From assembly GCF_024758705.1 (NCBI RefSeq), contig NZ_CP096971.1:1426001-1490000 (forward strand): 64,000 nt of DNA. Reading direction: 5' to 3'. The position numbers and the translations under genes were made by a program. Below are positions 14,995 through 52,146 of the stretch, one piece after another. This DNA is from Sphingomonas sp. SUN019. GTDB taxonomy: Bacteria; Pseudomonadota; Alphaproteobacteria; Sphingomonadales; Sphingomonadaceae. Each line of letters opens with the position of its first letter. Within the stretch, counting starts at the first letter, position 1. A model generated the notes under the pieces. It searched no databases. It was not told the DNA's origin and saw only the letters and a list, made by a program, of their open reading frames with translations.

Positions 14995-15103
14995 CCTCCC
15001 CTGCAAGGGGAGGTGGCAGGCGCAGCCTGACGGAGGGGTGACACGCTATCGAGAGGGCGATACCCCTCCGGCGCTGCGCGCCACCTCCCCTTGCAGGGGA
15101 GGA
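14995..15103. repeat. Palindromic intergenic element, type 1, copy A
   Basis: Long imperfect inverted repeat. The outer arms are CCTCCCCTGCAAGGGGAGG and CCTCCCCTTGCAGGGGAGG, each itself a small hairpin. Inner arms pair GGAGGGGTG with ACCCCTCC around the core GCTATCGAGAGGG (15045-15057). The same architecture occurs at 24907 and 52027. It follows the Mth938 stop directly and encodes the last 19 residues of the minus-strand glycosyltransferase. No transposase is present, so if mobile it must be mobilised in trans. Confidence 0.85.
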
Positions 15104-24906: not shown

Positions 24907-25027
24907 AATCCTCCCCTGCAAGGGGAGGTGGCGGGCCGAAGGCCTGACGGAGGGGTGTAGCGCTATCGAGAGGGTGACACCCCTCCGTCAGCGCTTCGCG
25001 CTGCCACCTCCCCGTACCGGGGAGGAT
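24907..25027. repeat. Palindromic intergenic element, type 1, copy B
   Basis: Same design as 14995-15103: outer hairpin CCTCCCCTGCAAGGGGAGG, core GCTATCGAGAGGG at 24962-24974, inner arms GGAGGGGTG and CACCCCTCC, right outer hairpin CCTCCCCGTACCGGGGAGG. It fills the gap between the convergent chorismate mutase and enoyl-CoA hydratase genes, and its last bases adjoin the hydratase stop codon. Confidence 0.85.
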
Positions 25028-26833: not shown

Positions 26834-26956
26834 TTCTCCCCGGCACGGGGAGGGGGACCAGCGAAGCTGGTGGAGGGGGCGGGCCGCAAGGGTTCCGCTC
26901 GCGGAAAGCCCCCTCCGTCGCGCCTTCGGCGCGCCACCTCCCCGTACCGGGGAGGA
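26834..26956. repeat. Palindromic intergenic element, type 1 variant, copy C
   Basis: Outer arms TTCTCCCCGGCACGGGGAGG and CCTCCCCGTACCGGGGAGG as in type 1, with inner arms GGAGGGGGC / GCCCCCTCC, but the core GCTATCGAGAGGG is replaced by a different sequence (GGGCCGCAAGGGTTCCGC). It lies between the nitronate monooxygenase start and the bamF stop, so it could end the ileS-lspA-bamF transcript. Confidence 0.8.
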
Positions 26957-27453: not shown

Positions 27454-27973
27454 TGAATTTCTCCACAGGCTCATTTGCCGACGCCTTGCCCGGCTTCTCG
27501 CGGATCAGCAATGCGCGGACCAGCAGGATGAGCACGCCTATCGTAATCGCCGCGTCGGCGACATTGAAGACCAAAAACGGCCGCCATTCCCCGATGTGCA
27601 GATCGGCGAAGTCGACGACATAGCCGAACCGCACCCGGTCGACGATATTCCCCAGCGCCCCGCCCAGCACGCAGCCGAGCGCGACCTGATCCGCGCGGTT
27701 CGATTCGCGCCACATCCACACGCACACGCCGATCGCGATCGCCCCGGTCATTGCGACCAAGGCCCAGCGCGCGATGTCGCTCTCGGCGCGCAGCAGGCCC
27801 AGCGAGACGCCGATGTTCTGCACGAAGCGCAGGTCGAAGAACGACGTGATCTCGCGGTACGCGCCGAGATAGTCGATCCCGAGCGGCCCGGTGACGATCC
27901 ATTTCGTCAGCTGATCGGCGATGAACAAACCGACCGCGACGGTGAGGCCGACCGTTGGAATAGCGCGCTTCAT
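27446..27973 (-). CDS. lspA: Lipoprotein signal peptidase (signal peptidase II)
   Basis: 175 aa, four-helix inner-membrane aspartyl protease that cleaves prolipoproteins. The catalytic Asp pair sits in LGGALGNIVDRVRFGYVVDF and the downstream FLVFNVADAAITIGV. The N-terminal IADQLTKWIVT matches the conserved D-x-x-x-K motif. Start ATG 27973 overlaps the ileS stop by 4 bp (ATGA type). Length and order (ileS then lspA) are the common bacterial arrangement. Confidence 0.96.
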   Translation of the reverse strand: MKRAIPTVGLTVAVGLFIADQLTKWIVTGPLGIDYLGAYREITSFFDLRFVQNIGVSLGLLRAESDIARWALVAMTGAIAIGVCVWMWRESNRADQVALGCVLGGALGNIVDRVRFGYVVDFADLHIGEWRPFLVFNVADAAITIGVLILLVRALLIREKPGKASANEPVEKFNA

Positions 27974-30969
27974 GGGACCACGCTCTCACAGCGCGCGCAG
28001 AGGGCGCCGTCTTCGGTCACTTCGGGCAGGTGCCGCCAGCAGCGGCCACATTTCGAAAATCGAGTCGTCGTCACGCTTATCGATGCTTTAGTGCGCGGAT
28101 CAGCGTGGAAATCGCCGGAGCTCACGTTCGCATCCATCCGAATGCTGGACAGGATCGCGATTTCTGCGAAGTCTACCGATTGAAGTAATTCCACCTGATC
28201 ATGTCCATCTACGTCCATGAAAACGTCGGCTTCAAGACTTGAGCGAACAAGTTTGTCACGCCGCAATGGCTCGATGGCTTCAGTTACCGCGGATCGATAC
28301 TCTCGAACGCGATCCCATTTTGTCGCCAGCGCCTGATCCGCGCTCCCGACCTGATCCGGCCACGTCAGGAAATGCACCGACTGGTCGTCGCTCGGATACC
28401 GCGCCTGCCAGACCTCTTCCGCAGTAAAGCACAACACCGGCGCGGCGTAGCGGACCAACGCGTGGAACAGCGTGTCGAGGACGGTCCGGTACGCGCGGCG
28501 CTTCGCGTCTGTTGGCGCGTCGCAATAAAGCGAATCCTTGCGGATATCGAAGAAGAACGCCGACAGATCCTCGTTCGCGAAATCGGTAAGCAGCCGGTTG
28601 TAGCGGTTGAACTCATACTTCTCCGCCGCGTCGCGCAGGTCGCGGTCGAGCGCGTGGAGCAGGTGCAGGACGTACCGCTCCAGCTCGGGCATCTCCGCGA
28701 TGGCCACGCGCTCGGCCTCCGAAAACCCGTCGAGCGCGCCGAGCAGATAGCGGAACGTGTTGCGCAATTTGCGATACGCGTCGGACGCGGTGCTCAGCAC
28801 CTCCTTGCCGATCCGCACATCCTCGAAATAATCGGTCGAGGCGACCCACATGCGCAGGATGTCCGCGCCGCTCTCGCCGATGATCTTCAGCGGATCGACG
28901 ACGTTGCCGAGCGACTTGGACATCTTCCGCCCCTTGTCGTCCAGCGCGAAGCCGTGCGTCAGCACCGCATCATACGGAGCGCGCCCGCGGGTGCCGGCGG
29001 ATTCGAGCAACGACGACTGGAACCAGCCGCGATGCTGGTCGGACCCTTCGACATAGAGGTCCGCACGGACGCCCTCGCCGTAACGCTGTTCGATCACGAA
29101 GGCGTGGGTGGAGCCGCTGTCGAACCACACGTCGAGAATGTCGTTCTGCGGTTCGTAGTCGGCGAGGTCGTATTTGTCGCCCAGTAGCGCCTGATGGTCC
29201 GCGGTGAACCACGCATCCGCCCCGCCCGCCTGGAAGGCCGCGACGATCCGGTCGTTGACCGCGCTGTCGTTGAGATACTGGCCGGTCGCGCGGTGGACGT
29301 AGAGCGCAATCGGCACCCCCCATGCGCGCTGGCGGCTAATGACCCAGTCCGGGCGGCCCTCCACCATCGATCGGATGCGGTTTTCCGCGCGCGCGGGCAC
29401 CCAAGTCGTCCGCTCGATCGCGTCGAGCGCGATTTCGCGGAGGGTGGCGGCGTTGCCCTGGGCGTGGCCTAGCGTAAGCCCCTCCCCTTCAGGGGAGGGG
29501 TTGGGGTGGGGTCTCTCCACGGGCGCGTCGGTCTCGGTGAGACTGAGACACCCCACCCCCGGCCCCTCCCCTGAAGGGGAGGGGGGAGCAGGAGCGTCCA
29601 TCGGAATGAACCACTGCGGCGTAGCGCGAAAGATCACCTTCGCCTTCGACCGCCACGAATGCGGATAGCTGTGTTTGAAATCGTCACTCGCCGCGAGCAA
29701 CGCCCCCGCCGCGCGCAAATTTGAACAGATCGGCCCGTCGCTGGCGACGAACTTCTTGTTGATGACCGACCCCTGCCCGCCGAGCCACGCCCAGTCGCCG
29801 CGAAACATCCCCGCCCCATCGACCGCGAACACCGGATCGATCCCGTACGCCTTGCACAACAGGAAATCATCCTCGCCGTGGTCGGGCGCCATGTGAACGA
29901 GGCCCGTGCCCGCATCGGTTGTGACGAAATCGCCGGGCAGGAACGGGCGGGGTTTCGCGAAGAACCCGCCGAAGTGATGCATCGGGTGACGCGCGGTTGC
30001 TCCGGCGAGGTCGGAACCCTTGCCACGCCACGATTCCGTGCTGCTGGTAAAGCCCAGGCGGTTAGCCACGGAAGGCAAAAGCGCCTCCGCGATCAATAGC
30101 CGTTTGTTGATGACGTTGGCACCGTTCTCGAACGAAGCGTCTGTCAGTTCGAGACCCCAACTCGCCTCGACAACGACGTACTCAACCTCCGGCCCATAGC
30201 TCAGCGCCTGGTTCACCGGGATCGTCCACGGCGTGGTCGTCCAGATCACCGCGTGCGCGCCGACCAGTTCGGGCGCATTCGGCGCATCCACAATCTCGAA
30301 CGCGACGTCAATCTGGGTCGACACCACGTCCTCATATTCGACCTCGGCCTCGGCCAGCGCGGTTTTTTCCACGGGCGACCACATCACCGGCTTCGCGCCG
30401 CGATACAGCTGCCCGCTCTCCGCAAACTTCAGCAATTCGCCGACGATCGTCGCCTCGGCGTCGTATTTCATCGTCAGATACGGGTCGGCCCAGTCGCCCA
30501 TCACGCCCAGCCGCTCGAACTCGGCGCGCTGCACCGCGACCCATTTTTCGGCATAAGCGCGGCATTCGGCGCGGAATTGCGCGACGGGGACGTCGTCCTT
30601 GTTCAGCTTCTTCGCGCGATACGCTTCCTCGACCTTCCATTCGATCGGCAGGCCGTGGCAGTCCCAGCCGGGGACGTAGGGCGCGTCATATCCCATCAGC
30701 GTGCGCGACCGGACGATGATGTCCTTCAGCACCTTGTTCATCGCATGGCCCATGTGGATGTCGCCATTGGCGTAGGGCGGGCCGTCGTGGAGGATGTAGC
30801 GCCGCTTGCCCGCGCGCTGTTCGCGCAGGCGATCGTACACGCCGATGTTCGCCCAGCGATCGAGGATCGCGGGTTCCTTGGCGGCAAGGCCGGCCTTCAT
30901 CGGGAAGTCGGTCTTCGGCAGGAAGACGGTGTCGCGGTAATCGCGCTTCTGTTCGGTGCTGTCGGTCAT
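27970..30969 (-). CDS. ileS: Isoleucine--tRNA ligase with in-frame repeat insertion
   Basis: 999 aa class Ia synthetase charging tRNA-Ile. HIGH-type motif HMGH at about residues 72-75, KMSKS at about 682-686, editing-domain stretch ALIWTTTPWTIP-like (AVIWTTTPWTIPVNQALSYG), and a C-terminal zinc finger (CGRCWRHLPEV, then CARC). Start at ATG 30969 (MTDSTEQKRDYRDT). Between RATPQWFIPMD and LREIALDAIERT, residues about 459-497 are a Pro/Gly/Ser/Glu-rich insert (PSPSGEGPGVG, HPNPSPEGEG) that normal IleRS lacks. It is a translated palindromic element. The rest of the enzyme is intact, so it is probably functional. Confidence 0.96.
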   Translation of the reverse strand: MTDSTEQKRDYRDTVFLPKTDFPMKAGLAAKEPAILDRWANIGVYDRLREQRAGKRRYILHDGPPYANGDIHMGHAMNKVLKDIIVRSRTLMGYDAPYVPGWDCHGLPIEWKVEEAYRAKKLNKDDVPVAQFRAECRAYAEKWVAVQRAEFERLGVMGDWADPYLTMKYDAEATIVGELLKFAESGQLYRGAKPVMWSPVEKTALAEAEVEYEDVVSTQIDVAFEIVDAPNAPELVGAHAVIWTTTPWTIPVNQALSYGPEVEYVVVEASWGLELTDASFENGANVINKRLLIAEALLPSVANRLGFTSSTESWRGKGSDLAGATARHPMHHFGGFFAKPRPFLPGDFVTTDAGTGLVHMAPDHGEDDFLLCKAYGIDPVFAVDGAGMFRGDWAWLGGQGSVINKKFVASDGPICSNLRAAGALLAASDDFKHSYPHSWRSKAKVIFRATPQWFIPMDAPAPPSPSGEGPGVGCLSLTETDAPVERPHPNPSPEGEGLTLGHAQGNAATLREIALDAIERTTWVPARAENRIRSMVEGRPDWVISRQRAWGVPIALYVHRATGQYLNDSAVNDRIVAAFQAGGADAWFTADHQALLGDKYDLADYEPQNDILDVWFDSGSTHAFVIEQRYGEGVRADLYVEGSDQHRGWFQSSLLESAGTRGRAPYDAVLTHGFALDDKGRKMSKSLGNVVDPLKIIGESGADILRMWVASTDYFEDVRIGKEVLSTASDAYRKLRNTFRYLLGALDGFSEAERVAIAEMPELERYVLHLLHALDRDLRDAAEKYEFNRYNRLLTDFANEDLSAFFFDIRKDSLYCDAPTDAKRRAYRTVLDTLFHALVRYAAPVLCFTAEEVWQARYPSDDQSVHFLTWPDQVGSADQALATKWDRVREYRSAVTEAIEPLRRDKLVRSSLEADVFMDVDGHDQVELLQSVDFAEIAILSSIRMDANVSSGDFHADPRTKASISVTTTRFSKCGRCWRHLPEVTEDGALCARCESVVP
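29479..29587. repeat. Palindromic element inserted inside ileS, in frame
   Basis: Outer arms CCCCTCCCCTTCAGGGGAGG (29479 on) and CCCCTCCCCTGAAGGGGAGG (right end), each self-complementary, with inner arms GGGGTGGGGTCTCTC and GAGACACCCCACCCCC that pair with a few bulges. The reading frame of ileS is preserved through it. Architecture (nested hairpins at both ends) resembles the type 1 elements but the sequence is distinct. Confidence 0.88.
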
Positions 30970-31024
30970 GGGTGCGCGGGCATTAGCGCGGGAATGCGCG
31001 GGCGTCACTATGGCGCGCCCGAAG

Positions 31025-44207: not shown

Positions 44208-44325
44208 CTCCCTCTCCCCTTCTGGGGAGAGGGTCGGGGAGAGGGGCAGTCCGTATCGCTGGTGACAGGCCCCTCTCCCGCCTTCGCTTCGCTCGGCACC
44301 CTCTCCCCGGAGGGGGAGAGGGAGA
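44208..44325. repeat. Palindromic element between the two metH genes
   Basis: Arms CTCCCTCTCCCCTTCTGGGG (44208 on) and CCGGAGGGGGAGAGGGAG (right end) with inner arms GGGGAGAGGGGC and GCCCCTCTCCC flanking the centre. It occupies nearly all of the 134 bp between the stop of the upstream metH gene and the ATG of the downstream one. Confidence 0.85.
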
Positions 44326-52026: not shown

Positions 52027-52146
52027 AATCCTCCCCTGCAAGGGGAGGTGGCAGGCGAAGCCTGACGGAGGGGTATCGCGCTATCGAGAGGGTGTCACCC
52101 CTCCGTCGCGCTACGCGCGCCACCTCCCCTTATAGGGGAGGATTAC
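52027..52146. repeat. Palindromic intergenic element, type 1, copy D
   Basis: Same architecture as copies at 14995 and 24907, with outer hairpins CCTCCCCTGCAAGGGGAGG and CCTCCCCTTATAGGGGAGG, core GCTATCGAGAGGG at 52080-52092 and inner arms GGAGGGGTA / ACCCCTCC. It lies between a plus-strand lipoprotein gene and a minus-strand transglutaminase gene. Confidence 0.85.

What the first reader, a model, noticed from the sequence alone, without database searches (positions are those of the whole stretch)
29479..29587. Palindromic repeat translated in frame inside isoleucyl-tRNA synthetase
About 39 residues (459-497) rich in Pro, Gly, Ser and Glu sit between RATPQWFIPMD and LREIALDAIERT, where IleRS normally has a short loop. 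The DNA there is a long nested palindrome with 20-bp ends, and both the peptide motifs PSPSGEGPGVG and HPNPSPEGEG come straight from its arms. This parallels the Rickettsia palindromic elements that invade essential genes in frame, but with an unrelated sequence. The reading frame and the catalytic motifs are kept, so an essential enzyme seems to tolerate selfish DNA in a surface loop of the catalytic core.
Basis: partly seen in the sequence, partly recalled or inferred. Interest (0 to 1): 0.78.

Follow-up and report, generated by a model that had tools for sequence, protein, structure and literature searches.

The report
Nuclease-linked palindrome inside an essential enzyme
A mobile-looking DNA palindrome is translated as part of an essential protein-synthesis enzyme in a Sphingomonas-type bacterium, and its two ends are the kind of ends that bracket small DNA-cutting-enzyme genes in these bacteria, which points to a possible mover of such palindromes.

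Summary
Confirmed: a 106-bp nested palindrome (29479-29584) is read in frame in the genome's only full-length IleRS. It is a dispersed repeat here (seven full copies, one split); another copy is in frame in ValRS. Across sphingomonads, 44 of 81 IleRS loops match palindromic elements of unrelated families at this position, and 5 of 19 ValRS carry one at another site.

New: the split copy encloses a DUF559 (Vsr/homing-endonuclease-like) gene. All five DUF559 genes here lie between long, locus-specific inverted arms, as do 75 of 89 in 21 sphingomonad genomes and 23 of 26 further genus loci (random placements 0 of 1000). Arm type follows DUF559 phylogeny. Other loop palindromes, including the CGTC-tagged type, bracket GIY-YIG nuclease genes instead (inverted arms 44 of 59; UvrC 0 of 10).

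Reading: a gene-less derivative of a nuclease-encoding palindromic element, built like REP/RAYT with another enzyme. Nuclease-driven movement is inferred. Against it: six of ten genomes rich in this hairpin have no DUF559 flanked by it, and the links weaken outside the genus. In-frame palindromes, one in Rickettsia IleRS, were already known.

The parts
27970..31008 (-). ileS, isoleucyl-tRNA synthetase (1012 aa from GTG; an ATG lies at codon 14); the only full-length IleRS match in the genome
29479..29584 (-). 106-bp palindromic element (family A) translated in frame as PSPSGEGPGVGCLSLTETDAPVERPHPNPSPEGEG
29479..29500 (.). left terminal hairpin of the element
29563..29584 (.). right terminal hairpin, inverted relative to the left one
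14995..15102 (.). another inverted hairpin pair; best match among own DUF559 arms is locus L129 (score 30)
24910..25025 (.). another inverted hairpin pair; best match L129 (score 32)
44210..44322 (.). another inverted hairpin pair; best match own DUF559 locus L127 (score 39)
52030..52141 (.). another inverted hairpin pair; best match L129 (score 31.5)

Best explanation
The insert is a non-autonomous copy (two inverted palindromic arms with a short spacer) of a small mobile element whose full form is arm - DUF559 nuclease gene - inverted arm. Shown: the dispersed copies; the full form with the same arms in this genome; locus-specific matched arms on most DUF559 genes in the genus; arm type following nuclease phylogeny; repeated, family-independent occupation of the same IleRS and ValRS sites. 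Inferred: the DUF559 protein, a Vsr/homing-endonuclease-like nuclease, recognises its cognate arms as hairpins or cruciforms, cuts there or at the target, and host repair copies the element in. Insertion would be blind to frame, but only events that keep the frame and fall in a tolerant loop survive in an essential gene, so these loops collect them. A second nuclease class, GIY-YIG, plays the same part for other palindrome families (F-type and CGTC-tagged) found in the same loops.
For: Own genome: split element with a DUF559 gene inside; 5 of 5 DUF559 loci with inverted arms, 5x5 arm matrix high only on the diagonal. 21 genomes: 75 of 89 DUF559 loci score >=20 for inverted arms against random placements 0 of 400 and 0 of 240 and 0 of 1000, and 0 of 46 ORF-centred placements in the window. 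Genus loci outside those 89: 23 of 26, same-locus controls 0 of 52. Within-locus arm match median 33, cross-locus in the same genome 10.5. Arm class on the DUF559 tree: 11 changes against 35.7 shuffled; Mantel rho 0.50, 0 of 500 as high. Loops that match DUF559 arms, where that genome's own DUF559 loci were tested: 12 of 14 match an arm of the same genome. GIY-YIG: 44 of 59, taken-as-UvrC 0 of 10; pyrimidine hairpins on both sides of 81 of 89 DUF559 and 1 of 59 GIY-YIG loci, F- or CGTC-type on both sides of 0 of 89 and 28 of 59. IleRS loops: 33 of 81 match DUF559 arms (control 0 of 162), 16 of 81 match GIY-YIG arms (control 0 of 81), 44 of 81 in union. 30 family changes on the IleRS tree with the loop left out. 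ValRS 5 of 19 filled, 14 empty. DUF559 profile matches PDB 3hrl (2.4e-33) and 3r3p 'Mobile intron protein' (5.1e-4). A Caulobacter DUF559 protein, VsrA, is needed for an SOS response in vivo (PMC12907096, passages).
Against: No movement, target-site duplication or exact empty site was seen. Of ten genomes with at least four exact A hairpins, three (G244, G287, G305) have a DUF559 gene with that exact hairpin on both sides and G000 has one with a mismatch in one arm; in the other six (G217, G221, G262, G279, G317, G322) none of their 30 DUF559 loci has it on either side, and G217 and G221 hold 50 hairpins each. G298 has two A hairpins and no DUF559 match; within the family, A hairpins occur in 19 of 57 genomes with DUF559 and 1 of 7 without, p = 0.42. 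14 of 89 DUF559 loci fall short of the threshold. Two of 14 loops match no DUF559 arm of their own genome (L018, L054). Arms of different genomes also resemble each other (43 of 445 cross-genome pairs >=20), so similarity alone is not locus-specific; the same-genome comparison is. The motif and arm-class patterns were written after seeing arms. Outside the genus the link weakens: DUF559 18 of 29 (order) and 17 of 29 (phylum); GIY-YIG 7 of 30 (phylum) with 2 of 60 controls passing.
Confidence: 0.6

Rival explanations
1. The palindromes spread by some other means, and DUF559 and GIY-YIG genes are homing-type hitchhikers that invade the middle of pre-existing palindrome pairs which they cut.
For: Both nuclease classes have relatives among homing or mobile-intron enzymes (3r3p; GIY-YIG background in PMC1564403, passages). 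The genes sit between two arms; A-rich genomes hold more hairpins than DUF559 genes; six of ten A-rich genomes have no A-flanked DUF559.
Against: A separate mover would be needed for each of many families; no Y1_Tnp (RAYT) gene was found in the own genome, though other transposases were not searched for. Arm class follows nuclease phylogeny, as expected of co-transmission; homing to a cognate palindrome would also give this.
Confidence: 0.27
2. A REP/REPIN moved by a RAYT tyrosine transposase.
For: Same architecture: inverted palindrome dimers dispersed in the genome, full form with a gene between two arms.
Against: No PF01797 match in the own genome, while the search rings in 5 of 14 control genomes. 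No GTAG anywhere in the element. A different enzyme sits between the arms.
Confidence: 0.05
3. A lineage-specific IleRS extension with accidental palindromic DNA, selected as protein.
For: All 81 loops are longer than the 2 residues of S. aureus IleRS; peptides rich in Pro, Gly and Ser recur.
Against: The same DNA is dispersed in the genome; different families sit at one site; close pairs are unrelated in the loop only (L017/L072 flanks 96.7% and 94.6% identical, best loop score 9).
Confidence: 0.05
4. Assembly or sequencing error at a strong palindrome.
For: Palindromes are error-prone in sequencing (recalled).
Against: Open frame and intact motifs; the same kind of insert in dozens of other genomes.
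Confidence: 0.01

Closest known systems
Rickettsia palindromic elements (RPE; Ogata 2000 seen only as a citation; PMC3767692 section 12 read; PMC10969869 passages)
   Same: Palindromic repeats (68-192 bp for RPE-4/6/7 in R. japonica) read in frame in housekeeping genes; IleRS and PheRS-beta host RPE-7; different RPE groups are listed for one gene in different species.
   Different: Other host group; this element has no ATGAC motif; a partner nuclease gene is seen here; unrelated superfamilies share one site, which favours repeated insertion over the common origin that paper leans to.
REP/BIME/REPIN with RAYT transposases (PMC3733652 passages; PMC2817692 and PMC3116915 listings only)
   Same: Inverted palindrome dimers as gene-less copies, a full form with a gene between arms; in-frame copies reported in uvrA, uvrB, dnaE2 and others.
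   Different: No GTAG, no tyrosine transposase found; a Vsr-like or GIY-YIG nuclease instead.
CGTC-tagged REPs (PMC3733652 passages)
   Same: One IleRS loop (L076) carries such a repeat (by eye; its match to GIY-YIG arms is weak, 22); CGTC-type arms lie on both sides of 10 of 59 GIY-YIG loci by a strict pattern.
   Different: The window's own element is of pyrimidine-hairpin type. [quoted passage not shown]
Free-standing homing endonucleases (Vsr-like and GIY-YIG; enzyme names such as I-Bth0305I are recalled)
   Same: Small nuclease folds, selfish spread, residence in conserved genes.
   Different: No intron or intein recognised; the product stays in the protein; palindromic arms and many gene-less copies.

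Membership tests
Rickettsia palindromic elements | Palindromic repeat of about 70-190 bp read in frame inside genes | tested here: met
   also the ValRS copy L119 (valine--tRNA ligase)
Rickettsia palindromic elements | ATGAC motif of RPE-4/6/7 (PMC3767692) | tested here: not met
   absent on both strands of 29479-29584
Rickettsia palindromic elements | Sequence similarity to the RPE families | not tested
   no Rickettsia sequence was fetched
REP/RAYT (GTAG REP) | GTAG tetranucleotide at one end of the palindrome | tested here: not met
   absent on both strands of the element
REP/RAYT (GTAG REP) | Y1_Tnp (RAYT) gene in the genome | tested here: not met
   PF01797: no match in own genome
CGTC-tagged REP | CGTC tag at one end of the palindrome | tested here: not met
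   one CGTC, in the spacer; C-type pattern on both sides of 0 of 89 DUF559 loci
MITE (non-autonomous derivative of a larger element) | Terminal inverted repeats shared with a gene-carrying copy in the same genome | tested here: met
   G000:C1:1010412-1010842 (L125/L128): same arms, DUF559 between (score 37)
MITE (non-autonomous derivative of a larger element) | Target-site duplication | tested here: inconclusive
   judged by eye only; flanks diverge too much, none evident
MITE (non-autonomous derivative of a larger element) | Movement in trans by the partner enzyme | not testable with these tools
   needs an experiment
Vsr-like / PD-(D/E)XK nuclease (DUF559) | Profile match and conserved acidic residues | tested here: met
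   PF04480 E 1.7e-33; invariant E16, D45, E56, D58, D67 in 12 aligned; PDB 3hrl and 3r3p

The most novel reading that the evidence does not exclude
Bacterial palindromic repeats that lack a transposase are the gene-less progeny of nuclease-palindrome elements: Vsr-like DUF559 nucleases own the pyrimidine-hairpin superfamily, and GIY-YIG nucleases own the CGTC-tagged and F-type superfamilies. A tiny structure-cutting nuclease plus two hairpin arms is then a minimal mobile element with no transposase. It would supply the missing mover of CGTC REPs and, by extension (not tested here), of the Rickettsia RPE-4/6 elements that invade coding genes.
Probability: 0.43. Interest if true: 0.93.

Novelty: new variant of a known kind. 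Interest (0 to 1): 0.84.

Why it matters
How palindromic repeats without a transposase spread, and what moves those that invade coding genes, has been open; a 2013 survey says so for CGTC REPs (PMC3733652, passages). The partition found here (nuclease class by palindrome superfamily, arms matched locus by locus, arms tracking nuclease phylogeny) gives concrete candidates that are cheap to test. It also shows that one loop each in IleRS and ValRS is a recurrent landing site where essential enzymes accept and swap selfish peptide inserts.

Tried and rejected
RAYT partner: no PF01797 in the own genome; other transposase families were not searched. Conserved sphingomonad extension: rejected. Defence-system reading of DUF559: weak partial DpdF matches in PADLOC for 2 of 3 proteins, none for the third. 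Presence/absence link of DUF559 with A hairpins: across the order 19 of 72 genomes with DUF559 against 1 of 75 without, but confounded by phylogeny and not significant within the family (19 of 57 against 1 of 7, p = 0.42). Target-site duplications: none seen by eye. Structure model of IleRS: queue refusals, then a job accepted that had not finished, so surface position and disorder of the loop are not shown. Literature: 10 searches of an open-licence library; among the papers listed, several searches being cut to the best 12-40 of far more hits, none was seen to link DUF559 or GIY-YIG to palindromic repeats in bacteria. All 12 papers with the word DUF559 were listed (titles and abstract starts); I read passages of one. 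PMC1564403 and PMC12306157 were checked by term search only.

Rows dropped or partial. GIY-YIG: 69 of 113 matches in 21 genomes are in the count (59 other, 10 taken as UvrC from their long frames); one more, L333, near a contig end, was left out; with the same assumed position it scored 10, so 44 of 60 if counted. DUF559: all 93 matches in 21 genomes used, eight half-gene matches merged into four, giving 89. The 20 other genomes were picked for their loop elements; 3 of 29 loci dropped as duplicates of the 89; no check against the loci; 64 of the 75 armed loci used (11 had no clean translation in my script; L186 is probably mistranslated and was kept). Phylum and order draws: only the 29-30 best-scoring loci of each search were tested; three GIY-YIG loci (L408, L412, L418) were cut short, two of them near contig ends, and counted as misses. 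The motif and arm-class patterns were written after looking at arms. Families of the five filled ValRS sites were assigned by eye.
Full report
1. The observation. In ileS (27970-31008, minus strand) the stretch 29479-29584 is a nested palindrome: two 22-nt hairpins, inverted, start to start 84 nt, inside a 33-nt inverted repeat that is 88% complementary. As single-stranded DNA it folds far better than 200 shuffles (z = -7.2, none as low). The IleRS frame runs through it and yields PSPSGEGPGVG...HPNPSPEGEG. The protein is an isoleucine--tRNA ligase above the curated cut-off and the genome has one full-length IleRS match. Against solved IleRS, residues 470-521 face two residues of S. aureus 1ffy.

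2. It is a dispersed repeat. The own genome (3.81 Mb, one contig) holds seven full copies, one split copy and one weak 38-nt match. The best match to the IleRS copy (93%) lies in frame in a 982-residue valine--tRNA ligase frame (L119; 1184.8 bits, cut-off 704). I did not annotate the surroundings of the other five full copies. The window holds four more inverted hairpin pairs of related type and one single hairpin; the pairs match arms of own DUF559 loci L129 (three) and L127 (one) with scores of 30-39.

3. The same loop is a hot spot. In 81 IleRS (the window's and the 80 best loci of 492 found; most titled Sphingomonas) the loop has 13-73 residues. At scores of 20 or more, 33 match arms of DUF559 loci of any of 21 genomes (control 0 of 162), 16 match arms of GIY-YIG loci (control 0 of 81), and 44 match either (L065 is exactly at the threshold). 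Where the genome's own DUF559 loci were tested, 12 of 14 such loops match an arm of the same genome; L018 and L054 do not. By similarity to seven representative loops, 39 of 81 fall into families A 7, B 11, D 6, E 7, F 6, G 1, H 1, and 42 into none. On a tree built without the loop these labels need at least 30 changes (21 of 78 inner branches are weak). Near-identical genes differ in the loop: L017 (A) against L072 (none), flanks 96.7% and 94.6% identical, best loop score 9; L020 (A) against L029 (B), 94.6% and 91.8%, 16.5; L009 (B) against L011 (F), 91.4% and 93.0%, 10.5. ValRS shows a second site: 5 of 19 (own, G008, G010, G016, G018) carry 82-85 residues where 14 have 44-46, with A-, B- and F-type elements by eye.

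4. The partner gene. The split copy (G000:C1:1010412-463 and 1010803-842) encloses a DUF559 gene (PF04480, E 1.7e-33). The own genome has five DUF559 matches and all five sit between inverted arms, one of them (L130) with an internal stop. Scoring each upstream arm against each downstream arm gives 40.5, 25.5, 43, 23.5, 32.5 on the diagonal and at most 19 elsewhere. Over 21 genomes (own, plus 20 chosen because of their IleRS loops) 75 of 89 DUF559 loci reach 20, and each genome has at least one. Random placements reach it in 0 of 400 and 0 of 240 and 0 of 1000, ORF-centred placements in 0 of 46. Arms of different genomes also resemble each other: 43 of 445 cross-genome pairs reach 20. Genus loci that are not among the 89 reach it in 23 of 26, same-locus controls in 0 of 52. 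93 of 101 genomes of the genus have DUF559. In wider draws 18 of 29 (order) and 17 of 29 (phylum; controls 0 of 58) reach it.

5. Arms and nuclease go together. Within-locus arm match has median 33, cross-locus in the same genome 10.5; in 67 of 88 loci the own partner arm beats every other downstream arm of that genome. Four arm classes set by pattern, plus four loci unclassed, need 11 changes on the DUF559 tree against 35.7 for shuffled labels; protein and arm similarity correlate (Mantel rho 0.50, 0 of 500 permutations as high; 64 loci, same-genome pairs left out). Near-copies between species add to this.

6. A second nuclease class. Loops of families F, G and H did not match DUF559 arms. 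I therefore asked whether another small nuclease carries them. In the same 21 genomes 44 of 59 GIY-YIG loci not taken as UvrC reach 20, and UvrC 0 of 10. By strict patterns their arms are F-type in 18 of 59 and CGTC-type in 10 of 59 (on both sides); the rest of the 44 carry variants or other palindromes. Pyrimidine hairpins flank 1 of 59, and that one has F-type arms too. For DUF559 the figures are 81 of 89 pyrimidine hairpins and 0 of 89 F- or CGTC-type. GIY-YIG arms are locus-specific as well (median 27 within, 9.5 across). All six F loops and the H loop match GIY-YIG arms at 35 or more; the single G (CGTC-type) loop only at 22. In the phylum draw the GIY-YIG link is weak, 7 of 30 with 2 of 60 controls.

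7. What DUF559 is. A profile of 12 members matches PDB 3hrl 'Endonuclease-Like Protein' (2.4e-33) and 3r3p 'Mobile intron protein' (5.1e-4); five acidic residues are invariant in the 12. That it belongs to the PD-(D/E)XK, Vsr-like nucleases is stated in PMC12907096 (passages), where the Caulobacter DUF559 protein VsrA is required for an SOS response in a methyltransferase mutant, so such proteins can lead to DNA damage in a cell.

8. Mechanism. Shown: a repeated unit of arm - nuclease gene - arm, gene-less copies with the same arms, and repeated arrival at the same protein loops. Inferred: the nuclease cuts its cognate hairpins or cruciforms and repair copies the element elsewhere. The element of the window is open in 3 of its 6 frames, the seven full own copies in 3-4 of 6, which helps in-frame survival. 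Selection, not targeting, may explain why loops of essential enzymes hold them.

9. Evidence against. No movement was seen. Among ten genomes with four or more exact A hairpins, DUF559 with that exact hairpin on both sides was found in G244, G287 and G305, and in G000 with one mismatch in one arm; in the other six, all 30 of their DUF559 loci were examined and none has it on either side, although G217 and G221 hold 50 hairpins each. Related hairpins with mismatches were not counted there. G298 has A hairpins and no DUF559. Within the family, A hairpins do not depend significantly on DUF559 (p = 0.42). Homing of nuclease genes into pre-existing palindromes remains a serious rival.

10. What is known. 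In-frame palindromes are known in Rickettsia, including RPE-7 in IleRS and PheRS-beta, where hot spot and common origin were both considered (PMC3767692, section 12), and REPs inside uvrA, uvrB, dnaE2 and other genes (PMC3733652, passages). [quoted passage not shown] Among the papers listed in my ten searches of an open-licence library I saw none that ties either nuclease class to palindromic repeats in bacteria. By architecture this is REP/RAYT with another enzyme, hence a new variant of a known kind; the enzyme class would be new for it.

Noticed in passing
L025:1946-2012 (IleRS loop of Sphingomonas sp. BT553): A second palindrome (GTTTCAGGT...ACCTGAAAC) appears to sit inside the hairpin arm of a D-type element, still in frame: an element within an element within IleRS.
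   Followed up: partly
G000:C1:3128246-3128563 (L130): One of the five own-genome DUF559 genes has an internal TGA, so it looks like a decaying copy; its arms still pair.
   Followed up: no
26937-26955: A single CCTCCCC-type hairpin without a visible partner, a possible half element.
   Followed up: no
L034, L053, L060 IleRS loops: Loops that match pyrimidine-hairpin arms (scores 25, 36.5, 38.5) but have little self-complementarity (15.5-18.5) look like decayed half elements kept in the protein.
   Followed up: partly
L373, L363 (GIY-YIG loci): Arms of a further palindrome type (GTCATTGCGAGCG...GAAGCAATCCAG), so GIY-YIG loci carry more families than F and CGTC.
   Followed up: no
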